From: a virus
Reading direction: 5' to 3' (one strand)
DNA length: 45,269 bases
IMG/VR virus record: IMGVR_UViG_3300045825_000495
Coordinates: 1 to 45,269 of that record
Both the position numbers and the translations under genes were made by a program. Each line of letters opens with the position of its first letter. Within the stretch, counting starts at the first letter, position 1. A model generated the notes under the pieces. That model was given only the letters and a program-made list of their open reading frames with translations. It was not told where the DNA came from and made no database searches. Shown here piece by piece: positions 1 through 14,398 of this stretch.

Positions 1-452
1 GGTGTACTTGAACGAACAATCTCAAGTCCCATTACTTTCATTTTAGGAGATGATAATCTAACACCTTCAACGTCAAGAACACGTGCAACATATTTTTTCT
101 TAGCAACAAAAAATCCACTATCAGCAACAATCTCACGATCCATTGCTTGAGCTTCAGGTTCGAAACAGTTCAAATATTCACTCAATTCTGTAAGGGTATC
201 GTTGATTACAGGTTGCAATTTTTCTTCACAGAAATCACTACAGAATGTTACAATATCATCCTTTGTAACATTAGGATTTTCTTTCTTGTGAATATTCACA
301 ATTGGAGATAAAGTGTGGTAACTATTATGAACTAGAATATGATTAGCAACAAAATTATGTGCTTCCTCAACTTCAATGTCATATACCCATTCTTCTTGTA
401 CTCCTATATCTTCTAAAATAAAATTGTTAGTAATTAACATCTCATATTTCAT
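1..452 (-). CDS. 43: DNA polymerase (gp43) C-terminal part preceded by the C-half of a split intein; partial
   Basis: This reading frame begins at ATG 452 (AAGGA about 10 bases upstream) and runs off the window edge after 150 codons. Residues 1-43 are a C-terminal intein half: block F (VYDIEVEEAHNF) followed by ANHILVHN, with the penultimate His and terminal Asn needed for Asn cyclization. The next residue, Ser44, would be the +1 nucleophile. From Ser44 (SYHTLSPIVN) onward the sequence reads as the part of a family B polymerase that follows motif C, entering the thumb. Joined in trans to the 761-2983 product it would restore GDTDS-SYHTL, matching T4 gp43 DTDSIYV. The start overlaps the end of the endonuclease remnant, so translation is probably coupled. 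The 3' end of the gene is outside the window. Confidence 0.9.
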   Translation of the reverse strand, partial: MKYEMLITNNFILEDIGVQEEWVYDIEVEEAHNFVANHILVHNSYHTLSPIVNIHKKENPNVTKDDIVTFCSDFCEEKLQPVINDTLTELSEYLNCFEPEAQAMDREIVADSGFFVAKKKYVARVLDVEGVRLSSPKMKVMGLEIVRSST

Positions 453-777
453 TCATATCCTTATATTTTTCTTTAATTGTGTTTATAATATTGATGAAAA
501 TATCTTCATTTTTTTCATCAGATTCCCATATATTATAACACATATATCCTTGATTTTTTATTAAATCGGTTTTTATTTTATCTTGTAACCATATAGATTC
601 GGAAGTCAATAACTTATTATATGGGTTAGGTGTATCATCTTTCTTATATAAATTTGGATTCGCATGAAAACAATTGCCATTAAATTCAATACATATTTTA
701 ATATCTGTAAGAACAAAATCATATCTATAATATTTTATGGTGATACCGATACAATTATTTCTAATATTGTACGTGTA
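442..777 (-). pseudogene. Vsr-like (EDxHD) homing endonuclease remnant between the two polymerase halves
   Basis: An open frame between in-frame stops encodes about 111 residues with hallmarks of the Vsr-fold homing endonucleases: YDFVL (catalytic Asp), IEFNG, CFHANP (catalytic His), an IWLQDKIK-like segment with Asp, and GYMCYNIWESDEK. There is no ATG, GTG or TTG before the conserved core, and the N-terminal part that normally carries the first Glu of EDxHD is missing. The frame overlaps the 3' end of the polymerase N gene and ends across the start codon of the polymerase C gene. It is most likely a decayed homing endonuclease that once spread the intein. Rescue by frameshifting from the upstream frame or a non-standard start cannot be excluded. 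Confidence 0.75.
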
Positions 778-2983
778 CTACCTTATCACCATTTTTAATA
801 TCTTTTGGTTTTATCTCTGCAAATATACCATCACGTACTACTATCATTGAATGGTCTTCTGTCATTACAACTGAATTGCCATTAACAGTTAATCTATACA
901 TTTTTTTCTTAACTTTGTGTTTCATTATATAATTCACATTATGATAATGCATACCCTTTTCTTGGATAACACCCAAGGTTTTATCATTTGCATCTTTTAC
1001 ATGTTTTACAAAATGATTTTCTTTTGTATTTTCAACCAATCCATTCATTTTATCATAATAATCAGAAATTGTTATATCACCAAATTTTTCAGTATTAATT
1101 ATAGTATCTCCAAGAACTGAACTATCCGTATCCCCTGCAAGAATTGAATCATACCCATAATTATTCATGGTATATCTTGATATTTCCCATGCAGTAACTT
1201 GATTACTTACACGTCCATTTGCCGTAATAGCAGCAGCGATTTCTTCATTAAACAAAACGAAATGTTTATTAGCCATTGCTCCATATAATGCGTTCATACG
1301 AATTTTAGCTGCTAGTTGTTTCGTGTTAAAGAATGCAATCATCTTCTCAGTTTGTTTGATATCTGATGAATCAATATCGATATCTGCTTTTTGATCTTGC
1401 AATAACATCTCATACTTGAACATTTCATTCTTCGCTACTTTACGACCTGCATATATTTCTTTAATCAGACGGGGAACAATACCTAATTTATCATTACGAA
1501 AAAATGCACCATTTATACCTGCTGAAACATTATGTTTCTTGAGAATTTTACCAACTTTTGCGAGGACATCTTTTTGATCCATCCACCTCATGAAATAACC
1601 TTCACGGGTTGACCATGGTGTTGGATTTTTAGAATCGTAATCATTTGATGTAAAATTTCCATCAAGAAATAATATTTTATCACGAATTTTCTTAAGGTCA
1701 TCATGCATCTTATCTTCTGTTACGTATGTCTCGGGTGACATATTACACCATCTCATAATTGATGGATATAGTGATGCAAAGTCAAACGAAACAATCCAGT
1801 TATGTTTTCCTTTTTTAGGATCTGCAACCCAACCACCAACAACCCCATTATACTCAGGATTACCTGAATCATTTGGAAGAATAAGATTATCGGCATATGA
1901 TTGGTTACTAATGTATATTCCCCAAGGTTTAACCGTTCCTAATGCATCATCTACGTTGATACCTGAACTGTATGCAATCATCCGTGTTAGTTCAACAAGA
2001 TTTAGTTTCTCATCCAGTTGATGTAACAGTACAGCATCTTTGATTCCATAATATACGAACTTCTCCCAATCACCGTGCATGAATGCTGAGATATTTTTGA
2101 ATTCGCCATAATCAACTTTTCCTTCACCTTCACCTAATTCCACCTTAATGATGTTTTCAAGTGAGTATGATGTTTGAGTTGTATATGTGAATTTCTTATA
2201 AAGGTCCATCATATCAAGAAGATAGATACCATCCCATGATGTTTGATATTCTTTTTGATTTGACCCAGGAACCGTTTTTTCTTTTACTGATGCACGACCT
2301 ACTGGACTTAAATTACCTTCGCCATATCCCATTTTCTTTGCACGATTTGTAAGATACGGAAAGTCGAATCCATGTCCGTTCCATGCAGTGATAATAGCAG
2401 GTTTAAGGTTATCCATCAATTTGAAGAACGCATAAAACAATTCTTTCTCGCTTGAAAATGATTTGAATATAAGATTAGGAAATTTCTGTCTTAACTCGTT
2501 GTGATATGATTCTGTGATACCTTCATCTGCAAGAATAATAATTTTTTTATTGAATGTATCATATATCTGAATCATGTTAACGGCTGAAGGTGTCACATCT
2601 GCATGAGGAAATCCTTGGTCAGGAAGAACTCGTGTTTCAATATCAAGGTACCATATTCGTGAGGTAAATTCAGTTTGTTGTGTGTAATAATTTTGTCTGA
2701 TATGCCCATAAACTGATGATATCTGACCGTATGTTGAACCACCGATTTGATCTTGGAATTTTATAAATTCTTTATATTCTTTATCATCATCGAAAACATG
2801 TTTCTCAAGGAATATATTCTCATCAAGTAAATATCTGAAATTGGTTGGTTTATTGCCTTTTGATTTTGTATAAATCTCAGGATTATAATTTGCTTTTCTT
2901 ATTACAGATTCTTTTTTATCCTCATCGAAAAAGCGCTCGTATAATGTGTACCCACTTTGGAAAACGTTTTCATAATTATTCAT
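761..2983 (-). CDS. 43: DNA polymerase (gp43) N-terminal part fused to the N-half of a split intein
   Basis: This 740-residue protein holds the 3'-5' exonuclease and most of the polymerase of a T4-type family B enzyme. Exo I is DIE (114-116), Exo II is in NGHGFDF (about 202-208), and Exo III is YYGIKD (about 311-316). Motif A is DFASLYPS (401-408), motif B is K560...NALYG, and motif C is GDTDS (617-621). Directly after motif C, residues 622-740 are an N-intein: block A begins SVLGDT, and block B contains TEDHS (the TxxH motif). The chain stops at GDKVVHVQY, inside the intein, so activity should require trans-splicing with the product of 1-452. The residue before GDTDS is Ala where many family members have Tyr. 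The start has AAGGAG six bases upstream. Confidence 0.92.
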   Translation of the reverse strand: MNNYENVFQSGYTLYERFFDEDKKESVIRKANYNPEIYTKSKGNKPTNFRYLLDENIFLEKHVFDDDKEYKEFIKFQDQIGGSTYGQISSVYGHIRQNYYTQQTEFTSRIWYLDIETRVLPDQGFPHADVTPSAVNMIQIYDTFNKKIIILADEGITESYHNELRQKFPNLIFKSFSSEKELFYAFFKLMDNLKPAIITAWNGHGFDFPYLTNRAKKMGYGEGNLSPVGRASVKEKTVPGSNQKEYQTSWDGIYLLDMMDLYKKFTYTTQTSYSLENIIKVELGEGEGKVDYGEFKNISAFMHGDWEKFVYYGIKDAVLLHQLDEKLNLVELTRMIAYSSGINVDDALGTVKPWGIYISNQSYADNLILPNDSGNPEYNGVVGGWVADPKKGKHNWIVSFDFASLYPSIMRWCNMSPETYVTEDKMHDDLKKIRDKILFLDGNFTSNDYDSKNPTPWSTREGYFMRWMDQKDVLAKVGKILKKHNVSAGINGAFFRNDKLGIVPRLIKEIYAGRKVAKNEMFKYEMLLQDQKADIDIDSSDIKQTEKMIAFFNTKQLAAKIRMNALYGAMANKHFVLFNEEIAAAITANGRVSNQVTAWEISRYTMNNYGYDSILAGDTDSSVLGDTIINTEKFGDITISDYYDKMNGLVENTKENHFVKHVKDANDKTLGVIQEKGMHYHNVNYIMKHKVKKKMYRLTVNGNSVVMTEDHSMIVVRDGIFAEIKPKDIKNGDKVVHVQY

Positions 2984-3027: not shown

Positions 3028-4368
3028 TTAAAGATTATTTAATAATTCTCTTAAATCCTCACGATACATGTCCGCAGGTTCTTTTTCTTTGATGTAATCA
3101 TATTCTGCTTTAGCGTCTTTTACATCCTTAACAATTTTTTCAATTGTTTCTTTTGTCAATGAATGAATCGGCATTCTTAATAGATAATCGTAACCATCAT
3201 CAGAAAAGTATTTTTGTTCTTTACAGTAATCAATCAGTGTTTGTTTAGGAACGTTTTTAATTTCAACCTCACCTGCAACTACAGCTTTTACAAATTTGTA
3301 TTTAGAACCAAGAACTTTTAACTCACGCAATAGATCACTTAAGGTAACATCTTTACGTTTATAGTAATATCCCAATCTATATTCAACAAAATACTTGACA
3401 ACATCAACTTCGGTTTCGAAATATTTTAACTCGCTATTCTCATCAAGTGTATTGATATTTTCTGTAATAGACTCATCAATTTTAAACATCTTACGTAATG
3501 TATTCTTAGATGTTAGTTTTGCAAGATTTTCCTTTGTCATCTTAACGACGTAATGAATATCACCGGAAGATTTGTCCTCGTATGATTGAATCGTTTTATT
3601 CTCCACTAATCCATCAAGATAACTTTCATATTTCTCATATGTAACACTAGGTGCAAGCTCAGTAATCTTTAGTGTAGTTGGATTGACAATCTCAATTTTA
3701 CCCTTTGCAATCCATCGACGAATCATACCGTCTTCCTCGACATCAAGCTCAAATGTACCAGAGAACCCATTGATTTTTGGAACAAGTCGTTTAAGTTCTT
3801 TGTCATCTAACTCGTCAAGACATGCATTAATAACATCTGCTGGGTCACGATTTAGAATATTTGTTGCAAACCCAACAGCAATACCACTTGTACCATTTAA
3901 GATAACTGTAGGAATAATTGGTAGGAAGTATTTAGGTTCAATCGGGTCACCATCATCTTCTTTAAATTGAAGTAGATTTTTGTCTTTAAATAGTTTATTG
4001 AAGTTACTGTTAAGTTTAACACCAATATAACGTGGTGCACCTGCTTGAGTTGAACGCAAAGAACCAAATTGTCCTTCACGGTCGAATAATGGCATATTGT
4101 TTTTGAAATCTTGAGCCATACCAGTAATAGCACTTTGAAGGGATGCATCACCATGATGGTATTTTGCATCTGCAGCAGTAGAACCTGCTAGTTGGAAAAT
4201 TTTCTTAGGTTTTTCACCTGAGACACCTTTCCAAAGGCGTGAAGATATATGTAAAATTTTTCGTTGAACTGGTTTTAATCCATCGATTACACTAGGAATT
4301 GCACGATTCTCAATCGTGTACATAGCATAATCATGATATTCTTTATCTAAATAATCGTTAATTAACAA
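3028..4368 (-). CDS. 52: Type II DNA topoisomerase medium subunit (gp52-like)
   Basis: This 446-residue protein matches the breakage-reunion (GyrA/ParC-like) subunit of T4 topoisomerase. It opens with the family N-terminus (DYAMYTIENRAIPSVIDGLK), then KPVQRKIL and the HHGDASLQSAI helix-turn-helix region. The active-site Tyr is probably Y114 in QAGAPRYIGV. GyrA-type C-terminal beta-pinwheel repeats are absent, as in T4 gp52. It should nick and rejoin DNA together with the ATPase subunit at 11605-13491. The start is TTG with AAAGGA upstream. The promoter at 4402-4423 overlaps a Fur-box-like palindrome. The gene is separated from the polymerase gene by 44 bases. Confidence 0.93.
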   Translation of the reverse strand: MLINDYLDKEYHDYAMYTIENRAIPSVIDGLKPVQRKILHISSRLWKGVSGEKPKKIFQLAGSTAADAKYHHGDASLQSAITGMAQDFKNNMPLFDREGQFGSLRSTQAGAPRYIGVKLNSNFNKLFKDKNLLQFKEDDGDPIEPKYFLPIIPTVILNGTSGIAVGFATNILNRDPADVINACLDELDDKELKRLVPKINGFSGTFELDVEEDGMIRRWIAKGKIEIVNPTTLKITELAPSVTYEKYESYLDGLVENKTIQSYEDKSSGDIHYVVKMTKENLAKLTSKNTLRKMFKIDESITENINTLDENSELKYFETEVDVVKYFVEYRLGYYYKRKDVTLSDLLRELKVLGSKYKFVKAVVAGEVEIKNVPKQTLIDYCKEQKYFSDDGYDYLLRMPIHSLTKETIEKIVKDVKDAKAEYDYIKEKEPADMYREDLRELLNNL

Positions 4369-11604: not shown

Positions 11605-13491
11605 TCAATCCTTTGTAAGTAATTTCTTACGCTCGGCAGGATCTTTTCCAAACCATACGTTTAATTGTTTTGCAGTATCAACATCCGATGATAACATAAC
11701 TTTAACTGGTGAATCCATCATTTCCTTGTAGGATATTTCGTCAAGTGCAGATAATCCTTTTTTGTATGTTGATGTCCATCCTTTACTATCACCAGAATTA
11801 ACGAAATCTTCGAAATCTGCTTCTGTATAAAAATGTTTTAACTCATCTTTCTTTGATGATACAACAATAGGCGTTAAGACCAGGAATATCATTCTACGTT
11901 CAAACAACTGAGGCCAATATTTGTAGAAGAAATTTGTAAGTAGACATGCAATCGACGTCCCATCTGTATCGGCATCAACAAAGAACAAAATTGATCCATA
12001 TCTCAGATTCGCCCAATCAGGTTCCTCACCCATACGCAAACCAATTGCAGACATCAATTTTTGTGCTTCTTCGTTCTCCATTACCTTTTTAGGTGTTAAT
12101 TCAGAAACGTTAATGAACTTACCACCTAATGGAAACGCAGCGAATTTTTGTGCATTTCTGTACTTACGAACACCGTTCAAAGCAGACATACCTTCGAACA
12201 ATCCTAGAACTGCTTCAGAACGATTTGTAGTTGAACATTCAATTAATCCTTCTACTTTTTTCTTTGACAATGCCTTATTTAATGCACGTAACTCTTTATT
12301 CTCATCAGCTTTTGCTTTTTTATCAAGCCAGTCAGAAATTGATTCTACAATCTCAGATTTGAATACCTTATTGAGGAATGCTTGTGTAGGAACATAATTG
12401 TATCTATCACCCGTTCCGTTGAATTCTTTCGATTCTGTAATCAAAAATTCCTTTGTCTGACTATCGAACGCAGGATTAACAACGCTTGCATTAACAAACA
12501 AGAATACATGATTTCTAATATCTGATGGTCGAATATCTGTTTTATATTTTTTAGAGATAAACTCACGAATCTTTGAAATGATTTTCTCACTCACGAACTC
12601 AATGTGATTACCACCTTTATATGTGATAACTGAGTTTACAAATGATGAATGTTTGAAACCATTATCAGAATATCCGATACCAATATCCCAACCATTATCC
12701 TTATCAAACATAACGTCATCACAAAAAATCTTACTATACTCTTGGAAATTTTTAATGTCAATTTTTACATCATTAAAATAAACCTTAAGATTTGCATTAC
12801 ATCCTGCAACGTCAAGCACACGTTTATAAATTAATTTGAGATGTGTTTCATCAAGACCATAATCAGATTCGATACCATCACTTGTTTTCATCTTAAAATA
12901 TTCATAATCAGGAATATAATCGATGATTGTACCGTTCTTTGAACCTTTAGATATTTTCACCTTGCTTTTAACATGCAGATTATCTGTTGCTTCCTGATGA
13001 AATTTATTTTCGCCATCACATGTTGTTACAGAAAAGTATTTTGAAAAGATATTTGTAAGTTTAGAGCCTAACCCATTTGTACCTGCACCTGTACGCTGGT
13101 CATCATCATTGTAATTACTTCCTGAACGTAACTCAAAGAAAATAATTTCAGGTACATATTGCTCATATACCTTATGAATTATGACAGGTATTCCACCATT
13201 ATCGGCAACGGTAATACGTCCTTCAGGTGTTACATTTACTTTAACAGTATTTAACATAGAACCTTGAATTTTTGATGCATCAACACAGTTAGTGATTACT
13301 TCATCAAACAATTTGATAAATGCAGGAATAAAATTTACTTCCCTGTATTCCATCTCATAACTGTCTAAAGATTTTGGAATGAACATATCTAGCTTGTGTG
13401 GTTTTGTGTTCCCCACGTATGTACCCGGGCGAAATCTAACATGTTCAATATCTGTTAATTTTTTATATTTGTCTTCAATCGATTTACTCAT
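11605..13491 (-). CDS. 39: Type II DNA topoisomerase large (ATPase) subunit, gp39/gp60 in one chain
   Basis: A 628-residue GyrB-like protein. The GHKL ATPase shows EVITNCVDAS, ADNGG and GAGTNGLGSKLTNIF. The Toprim part shows EGMSAL..., FPLGGKFINV and the metal-binding DADTDGTSIACLLTN. In T4 the equivalent is split between genes 39 and 60; here it is a single chain. It should act with the medium subunit at 3028-4368. The chosen start is ATG 13491 (MSKSIEDKYKKL) with AAGGAT, rather than the earlier TTG. The gene overlaps the endonuclease gene upstream by 8 bases. Confidence 0.94.
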   Translation of the reverse strand: MSKSIEDKYKKLTDIEHVRFRPGTYVGNTKPHKLDMFIPKSLDSYEMEYREVNFIPAFIKLFDEVITNCVDASKIQGSMLNTVKVNVTPEGRITVADNGGIPVIIHKVYEQYVPEIIFFELRSGSNYNDDDQRTGAGTNGLGSKLTNIFSKYFSVTTCDGENKFHQEATDNLHVKSKVKISKGSKNGTIIDYIPDYEYFKMKTSDGIESDYGLDETHLKLIYKRVLDVAGCNANLKVYFNDVKIDIKNFQEYSKIFCDDVMFDKDNGWDIGIGYSDNGFKHSSFVNSVITYKGGNHIEFVSEKIISKIREFISKKYKTDIRPSDIRNHVFLFVNASVVNPAFDSQTKEFLITESKEFNGTGDRYNYVPTQAFLNKVFKSEIVESISDWLDKKAKADENKELRALNKALSKKKVEGLIECSTTNRSEAVLGLFEGMSALNGVRKYRNAQKFAAFPLGGKFINVSELTPKKVMENEEAQKLMSAIGLRMGEEPDWANLRYGSILFFVDADTDGTSIACLLTNFFYKYWPQLFERRMIFLVLTPIVVSSKKDELKHFYTEADFEDFVNSGDSKGWTSTYKKGLSALDEISYKEMMDSPVKVMLSSDVDTAKQLNVWFGKDPAERKKLLTKD

Positions 13492-14380
13492 TATTATCCT
13501 TATTTTTGCAATTTTCAAAATGATATCTTTTCATATTTCCTCCTGAACCTATTTTTCCACAATGAGGACATTCTTTGTCTTCATACTTATGGCCTTTTAT
13601 AGTTTTTAGTCGACCTAATACATATCCATCAGGTATATTGCTTCTATCAACTCGAAGTTCTTCAAGACTATTATTGACCCATATTGTATCATACATTACA
13701 TTAAGATCACCTGAAATTTGTAAAGAATGTCTTTGATAAGTATTTAAACCATCATCCCCAATCTTTGATTTGGTATCCCTTTCTTTACGCTTAGATTCCT
13801 CAGTATTAAAAATTCCACCCTCATCATGCAATTTTTTAATTGAGCAAGATATCTTAGATTTTACTTCATCCCTGGTTGATGCATTATTCTCACCGTATTT
13901 TGCTGAACGTTGAAAGATTGTTAATCCATCATCACCAATCTTTGATTTAGTTGCAATCATCTTATCTATATGTTCTTTTGATTTATTTACACCCTTCATC
14001 TTGGCACCACCTCTTTGATAACTATTTAACCCGTCAGGTCCCACAATTAATTTTGATACATGAGTTTTTGAGGTTCTTTCCTCGTGCCATATAGGATTGA
14101 ATTTTAATCTATTTTGTTTATTTAGACATCCATTAAATAACATTACCTTATCTATGATTTTTTCTTCATATGCACAGGCATCCTCAGGGGTATTAAACAC
14201 TTTACAAATCTTAATATCAAATGTATCTTTTCCTTCGTTTTCAACTATAGTGTGAATATAACTACTTGATGTAAAATATTTAACCCAGAAATCTGATGGA
14301 TTTGCATTCTTGTTGTATTGAACCCCATAATAAAATTCTTTGGTTATTTTATGTTTTATTCTATATACATATGGTTTCAT
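13484..14380 (-). CDS. GIY-YIG-like (Seg-type) homing endonuclease
   Basis: This 298-residue protein starts with a GIY-YIG-type module (PYVYRIKHKITKEFYYGVQY) followed by FWVKYFTSSSYI and a later YEEKII, consistent with the catalytic fold. Three related motifs follow (GPDGLNSYQR, IGDDGLTIFQR, IGDDGLNTYQR), typical of repeated DNA-binding units in phage endonucleases. A C-terminal zinc-finger-like segment (CPHCGK...HFENC) closes it. The start is ATG 14380 with AAAGGAT, and a TATAAATA late promoter lies 19 bases upstream. It sits directly upstream of the topoisomerase gene, a common homing target. Confidence 0.85.
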   Translation of the reverse strand: MKPYVYRIKHKITKEFYYGVQYNKNANPSDFWVKYFTSSSYIHTIVENEGKDTFDIKICKVFNTPEDACAYEEKIIDKVMLFNGCLNKQNRLKFNPIWHEERTSKTHVSKLIVGPDGLNSYQRGGAKMKGVNKSKEHIDKMIATKSKIGDDGLTIFQRSAKYGENNASTRDEVKSKISCSIKKLHDEGGIFNTEESKRKERDTKSKIGDDGLNTYQRHSLQISGDLNVMYDTIWVNNSLEELRVDRSNIPDGYVLGRLKTIKGHKYEDKECPHCGKIGSGGNMKRYHFENCKNKDNNE

Positions 14381-14398
14381 TATCAATCCTTTTTCTTT

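What the first reader, a model, noticed from the sequence alone, without database searches (positions are those of the whole stretch)
1..2983. DNA polymerase gene fractured by a split intein at motif C
The polymerase is encoded in two genes. The first ends with a 119-residue N-intein that starts right after GDTDS of motif C. The second begins with a 43-residue C-intein ending HN before Ser. Splicing would rebuild GDTDS-SYHTL, the catalytic centre. The replicative polymerase would therefore be inactive until trans-splicing, which could be exploited as a control point. The intein has Ser at position 1 and Ser at +1.
Basis: partly seen in the sequence, partly recalled or inferred. Interest (0 to 1): 0.85.

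Follow-up and report, generated by a model that had tools for sequence, protein, structure and literature searches.

The report
Split-intein phage polymerase, decayed endonuclease
This T4-like phage makes its DNA polymerase as two pieces that a self-excising protein element should join right at the catalytic site; the arrangement is real but belongs to a known, already laboratory-tested family, and here its 'selfish' DNA-cutting gene has worn down to a stump.

Summary
On the minus strand, a family-B (gp43-like) polymerase is encoded in two genes. The first ends in a 119-aa N-intein directly after GDTDS of motif C; the second starts with a 43-aa C-intein ending HN|S. An intein-free relative (82% identical, same gene order) reads LAGDTDSSYHTL, exactly the predicted splice product. 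The class-1 Ser1/Ser+1 signature residues are present.

This is a new member of a known family: cysteine-less PolB split inteins at motif C of phages (Aeromonas Aes123/Aes508, Campylobacter CP21, PTm1, MIJ3/PA5oct). Aes123 and CP21 trans-splice in vitro, and Aes has a crystal structure (9HTH). Nothing supports a regulatory 'control point'.

First, a 111-codon open frame between the halves is the 3' third of the family's VSR-like homing endonuclease; its N-terminal part and start codon are gone, so the element is probably immobile. Second, the intein sits one codon downstream (GDTDS^S, Ser at -1) of the usual GDTD^S site; all 71 other distinct inteins tabulated have Asp at -1. Across relatives, endonuclease loss usually spares the 3' end, which carries the C-intein's translation start.

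The parts
1121..2983 (-). N-terminal extein: family-B DNA polymerase residues 1-621, through GDTDS of motif C
   Evidence: aligned to intein-free L002
764..1120 (-). N-intein, 119 aa (Ser1, NX Lys-His68, block B TEDH); stop codon at 761-763
   Evidence: TIGR01445 above cut-off; alignment with seven known relatives
442..777 (-). Open frame of 111 codons without an early start codon: 3' remnant of a VSR-like homing endonuclease gene, overlapping the N-intein gene end by 17 nt and the C-intein start by 11 nt
   Evidence: phrog_22677 1.8e-19 at positions 260-350/353; 104.6 bits at 302-397/399 of a model of full-length relatives
458..462 (-). AAGGA Shine-Dalgarno-like sequence 5 nt before the C-intein ATG, inside the endonuclease remnant
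   Evidence: sequence
324..452 (-). C-intein, 43 aa, ending VHN
   Evidence: TIGR01443 above cut-off
3..323 (-). C-terminal extein: polymerase from Ser+1 (SYHTL...), cut by the contig end
   Evidence: phrog_1918 and phrog_262; 91% identical to L002/L016
2988..2993 (-). AAGGAG Shine-Dalgarno-like sequence 4 nt before the polymerase ATG
   Evidence: sequence

Best explanation
A T4-like phage PolB gene is fractured at motif C by a typically split, cysteine-less class-1 intein (Ser1/Ser+1). The two precursors are translated separately, the intein halves associate, and trans-splicing joins ...LAGDTDS to SYHTL..., restoring an ordinary gp43-type polymerase. The split came from a mobile 'fractured gene' cassette (N-intein / free-standing VSR-like homing endonuclease / C-intein). 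In this phage the endonuclease gene has lost about two thirds of its 5' end, including its start, so the element is probably immobile and is kept because the essential polymerase now depends on splicing. The endonuclease 3' end survives, most likely because the C-intein's ribosome-binding site and start codon lie in it. Shown: gene layout, intein identity, splice-product match, endonuclease truncation, biochemically active relatives. Inferred: actual splicing in this phage, inactivity of the unspliced halves, loss of mobility, and the reason the remnant persists.
For: Curated intein N- and C-terminal models hit both halves above cut-off. The intein-free relative reads exactly the predicted product. 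Catalytic motifs are shared with tested relatives, and the family profile finds the solved Aes intein 9HTH at 5e-45. Homologous N-intein/VSR endonuclease/C-intein cassettes occur in CP21, Aes508, PTm1 and VPALA. The remnant scores 104.6 bits against a model built only from full endonucleases, while the best shuffled gap scores 9.9. In 32 of 42 relatives with a full endonuclease its stop overlaps the C-intein start.
Against: No splicing has been shown for this sequence. The -1 residue is Ser rather than the Asp of all 71 other distinct inteins tabulated, so efficiency could differ. The C-half is truncated by the contig end and the genome is incomplete. The endonuclease frame is still open over 111 codons, so decay must be recent or the frame is still translated.
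Confidence: 0.92

Rival explanations
1. Splicing at the catalytic centre is a regulatory control point: the phage holds replication until a signal triggers trans-splicing.
For: The catalytic motif is divided, so replication by this enzyme would have to wait for splicing.
Against: Tested relatives splice spontaneously and quickly without a trigger. An intein-free sister has the same gene order. A mobile-element origin with an endonuclease explains the layout. Insertion into the most conserved motif is what a homing element would choose in any case.
Confidence: 0.03
2. The intein really starts one residue earlier (SSVLGDT..., Asp at -1 as in all relatives), and the spliced polymerase reads GDTDSYHTL, one residue shorter than its sister.
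For: It keeps the -1 Asp that is otherwise universal (71 of 71). The extra Ser codon (AGT) does not match the codon of the sister (TCA).
Against: It would shorten the conserved DTDS-x-Y/F spacing of the polymerase and break the block A spacing from Ser1 shared by the relatives. The intein-free sister has DTDSSYHTL. It needs two one-codon indels.
Confidence: 0.1
3. The two halves are not joined; the fragments assemble without splicing into a two-chain polymerase, as other split phage polymerases do (for example 43A/43B of Aes508 or phiKT1024).
For: Non-intein splits of gp43 do occur.
Against: Both intein halves are complete and keep every catalytic residue. The halves would carry 119 and 43 extra residues next to the catalytic Asp.
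Confidence: 0.03
4. The gap between the halves is an assembly artefact: a deletion in the contig has removed most of a full endonuclease.
For: Close relatives have full endonucleases here; this is a metagenomic contig.
Against: Independent 5'-truncated remnants of the same layout occur in other contigs (L117, L123, L131, L134, L120-L122), and the finished phage Aes516 lacks all but a tail.
Confidence: 0.05

Closest known systems
Aes123/Aes508 PolB1 split intein (Aeromonas T4-like phages; crystal structure 9HTH)
   Same: Same host gene and motif C, Ser1/Ser+1, typical split (about 120 + 40 aa), VSR-type endonuclease gene between the halves
   Different: Inserted at DTD^S; the polymerase is also split elsewhere (43A/43B) and carries an intron; endonuclease intact in Aes508, only a short tail fused to the N-intein in Aes516; 37% identity in the N-intein
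CP21 PolB1 split intein (Campylobacter Firehammervirus; splices in vitro, PMC12707363)
   Same: 43% identical N-intein and the same overlapping N-intein/endonuclease/C-intein gene order
   Different: Full 333-aa endonuclease and the DTD^S site; its relative CC_R7 has a contiguous mini-intein without endonuclease
PTm1/PTm5 and MIJ3/PA5oct split PolB inteins
   Same: Split PolB intein at motif C with an endonuclease gene between the halves
   Different: MIJ3/PA5oct carry an HNH/Hef-like, not VSR-like, endonuclease; in PTm1 the polymerase has a further split upstream
Fractured genes (Dassa et al. 2009, NAR 37:2560; known here only from citations and from memory)
   Same: Essential gene broken by a split intein with a free-standing endonuclease gene between the halves
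   Different: Here the endonuclease is truncated
Nanoarchaeum equitans Pol split intein
   Same: Cysteine-less split intein of a DNA polymerase; its position at motif C is recalled from memory, not tested
   Different: Archaeal chromosome, thermophilic

Membership tests
Class-1 Ser1/Ser+1 (cysteine-less) split intein | Nucleophilic Ser at position 1 and Ser/Thr at +1 | tested here: met
   S1 (TCA) and +1 S (AGT)
Class-1 Ser1/Ser+1 (cysteine-less) split intein | Block B/N3 TxxH, F-block Asp, terminal HN | tested here: met
   TEDH, VYDIEV, VHN
Class-1 Ser1/Ser+1 (cysteine-less) split intein | Motif NX His preceded by Lys or Arg | tested here: met
   Lys-His68, His invariant in the 8-row alignment; motif as defined in PMC10189870; equivalence of the position is by alignment, not structure
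Class-1 Ser1/Ser+1 (cysteine-less) split intein | No cysteine in either intein half | tested here: met
   sequences
Class-1 Ser1/Ser+1 (cysteine-less) split intein | Trans-splicing activity | not testable with these tools
   needs co-expression of the two ORFs
PolB motif-C split intein family (Aes/CP21) | Homologous intein in a phage PolB at motif C | tested here: met
   29-43% identity to seven known members; same HMM family
PolB motif-C split intein family (Aes/CP21) | Exact insertion point GDTD^S (or GD^TDS) | tested here: not met
   Window is at GDTDS^S; the other 71 distinct inteins are 54 GDTD^S and 17 GD^TDS. Exact position is a usual rather than a defining trait: homology is clear, so this is called a positional variant within the family
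Fractured gene with free-standing homing endonuclease | Complete endonuclease ORF between the intein halves | tested here: not met
   only positions 302-397 of a 399-position model remain; filed as a decayed derivative of such a cassette

The most novel reading that the evidence does not exclude
The stump of the selfish endonuclease gene has become a working part of the host gene: ribosomes finishing the first half of the polymerase pass along the remnant frame to start the second half, so the tail of a dead parasite gene is kept as a translational bridge. This would explain why several relatives that lost the endonuclease keep its 3' end, often in an open frame overlapping both flanking genes.
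Probability: 0.2. Interest if true: 0.5.

Novelty: new member of a known kind. Interest (0 to 1): 0.35.

Why it matters
It adds a diverged, naturally cysteine-free split intein (at most 55% identical to any compared here) to a family already used in protein engineering, with an unusual Ser at -1 in place of the family's Asp. It is also a snapshot of a fractured-gene element after its mobility gene has died but before the halves are rejoined or lost. With the comparative set (intact, 5'-truncated, tail-only, endonuclease-free and contiguous versions of one intein family), the order of these steps becomes testable.

Tried and rejected
Regulatory control point: no evidence, see rivals. Chance intein match: rejected, both halves hit curated models above cut-off. 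Sequencing frameshift joining N-intein to endonuclease: not needed, because the N-intein ends at the family's usual position. Recent homing exchange with the L002 lineage and flank co-conversion: tested, no raised identity beside the junction. Search of viral contigs with the remnant alone: no relatives found. Dassa 2009 full text is not held. The genome-contig scan gave four weak archaeal or bacterial hits that were not pursued. Structure prediction was not run: the joined intein is not a window sequence, and sequence evidence was sufficient.

Full report
WHAT IS THERE. The window is a whole IMG/VR virus contig of 45,269 bases, a linear fragment. On the minus strand a type-II topoisomerase gene (4368..3028) is followed by ORF 2983..761 (740 aa) and ORF 452..3 (150 aa, cut by the contig end). 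Residues 1-621 of the first are a gp43-like family-B polymerase up to GDTDS of motif C. Residues 622-740 are an N-intein (NCBIfam intein_Nterm 31.3 bits, cut-off 24.5). The second ORF begins with a 43-aa C-intein (intein_Cterm 36.1 bits, cut-off 15.6) and goes on as PolB. The boundaries are fixed independently by the closest relative, L002 (IMGVR_UViG_3300036715_002709): same topoisomerase upstream, 82% identical over the N-half, uninterrupted 890-aa PolB reading ...SILAGDTDSSYHTLSPIVN.... Joining window residues ...LAGDTDS and SYHTL... gives exactly this. The two intein reading frames differ and have stops between them, so splicing can only be in trans.

Between the halves is a 111-codon open frame (777..442) with no ATG, GTG or TTG in about its first 55 codons. 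It overlaps the end of the N-intein gene by 17 nt and the C-intein start by 11 nt. It matches the C-terminal part of phrog_22677 (1.8e-19, positions 260-350 of 353) and the proteins encoded between the intein halves in Tenacibaculum phage PTm1 ('VSR endonuclease'), Campylobacter phage CP21 (CP21_248) and Aeromonas phages. Against a model built from 35 full-length relatives, the window excluded, it scores 104.6 bits at positions 302-397 of 399. The N-terminal ~240 residues present in CP21_248 are absent. So the nuclease is very probably dead and the element immobile (inference). An AAGGA sequence sits 5 nt before the C-intein ATG, inside the remnant.

KNOWN FAMILY. The same cassette in the same gene is annotated in Aeromonas phages Aes508 and Aes516 and in PTm1 as 'intein-containing split DNA polymerase precursor'. 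It is visible in CP21, F379, VPALA and PA5oct and reported for MIJ3 (PMC6892783). The Aes123 and CP21 PolB1 inteins, and two metagenomic PolB2 inteins (LCGC14, GOM-OPS-1), trans-splice in vitro: CP21 with a half-time of 36 s and about 40% yield, LCGC14 with 95% yield (PMC12707363); Aes is ultra-fast but about 30% efficient, structure 9HTH (PMC11923092). The window intein carries the signature: Ser1, Lys-His68 at the motif-NX position, TEDH, F-block Asp, HN, Ser+1, and no cysteine. A profile of the family finds 9HTH at 5e-45.

COMPARATIVE SET. A profile-guided scan of IMG/VR gave 80 loci; with the phage records and earlier loci, 72 distinct inteins were tabulated.

(a) Insertion site. 54 are at GDTD^S, 17 at GD^TDS, and only the window is at GDTDS^S; the -1 residue is Asp in 71 and Ser in the window. 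Two relatives whose target also reads DTDSSY (L106, L156) use the usual site, so the target does not force the shift. The alternative, that the window intein is one residue longer and the product one residue shorter, is disfavoured by the block A spacing and by L002, but is kept as a rival. How the shift arose is unexplained.

(b) Endonuclease state. In 32 of 42 loci with a full endonuclease its stop overlaps the C-intein start. Among split loci that lost it, clear remnants of the 3' end remain in the window, L120, L117, L134, L164 and L102, with weak traces (E 0.004 to 0.25) in L150, L111, L009 and L127. The one locus that keeps the 5' part instead, L135, has a sister (L144) whose endonuclease does not overlap the C-intein start (22-nt gap). 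The simple reading is that deletions must spare the C-intein's translation start. Loci such as L118, L113 and L139 show no detectable remnant, so the remnant is not indispensable everywhere, and these loci are not all independent events.

(c) Contiguous forms. 13 of the 72 inteins are contiguous and need 12 changes on the intein tree, at least 8 of them forced by well-supported branches. Pairs such as CC_R7 against CP21/F379 and L151 against L156 are closely similar in intein sequence but differ in being contiguous or split. The tree is short and unrooted, so the direction is not shown. The window sits on a long branch (0.84) outside any well-supported group; its best match is L095 at 55% identity.

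MECHANISM. Most likely the halves are made separately, associate and splice spontaneously, restoring the polymerase. The control-point idea is not supported: relatives need no trigger, an intein-free sister has the same gene order, and a mobile-element origin accounts for the layout. No sign of recent homing exchange with the L002 lineage was seen in flanking identity.

LIMITS. Splicing of this pair, inactivity of the halves, and absence of a second polymerase in the full genome were not testable here. The C-terminal part of the polymerase is off the contig.

VERDICT. A real and well-formed feature, a new member of a known, biochemically proven family, with a shifted insertion site and a decayed endonuclease as its distinctive points.

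Noticed in passing
window 442-777; loci L120, L117, L134, L164, L102, L135, L144: When the endonuclease between split PolB inteins is lost, its 3' end is usually what remains; the one 5' remnant (L135) comes from a lineage whose endonuclease does not overlap the C-intein start.
   Followed up: partly
L005 (CC_R7) versus L006 (CP21) and L011 (F379); L151 versus L156: Closely similar inteins exist both as contiguous mini-inteins and as split halves with an endonuclease between; contiguous forms are scattered over the intein tree, suggesting repeated splitting or rejoining.
   Followed up: partly
L011 4341-5340: In Campylobacter phage F379 the endonuclease frame is broken into pieces, another decay stage of the CP21 gene.
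   Followed up: no
L097 4338-4535: One of the window intein's nearest relatives carries a GIY-YIG-like frame (KTINEKYYIGMHRT) rather than a VSR-like gene between the halves, suggesting endonuclease swapping.
   Followed up: no
L014, L116, L117, L120, L130, L138 and others: A second insertion position two codons upstream of the usual one, GD^TDS with Thr at +1, is common (17 of 72 distinct inteins), in both split and contiguous form.
   Followed up: partly
window 13484-14386: A second homing-endonuclease-like gene (phrog_314) lies directly upstream of the topoisomerase large-subunit gene.
   Followed up: no
L007 3989-6922: The Vibrio phage phiKT1024 polymerase is split upstream of motif C with a small cysteine-rich ORF between the halves and no intein: a different kind of split.
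   Followed up: no
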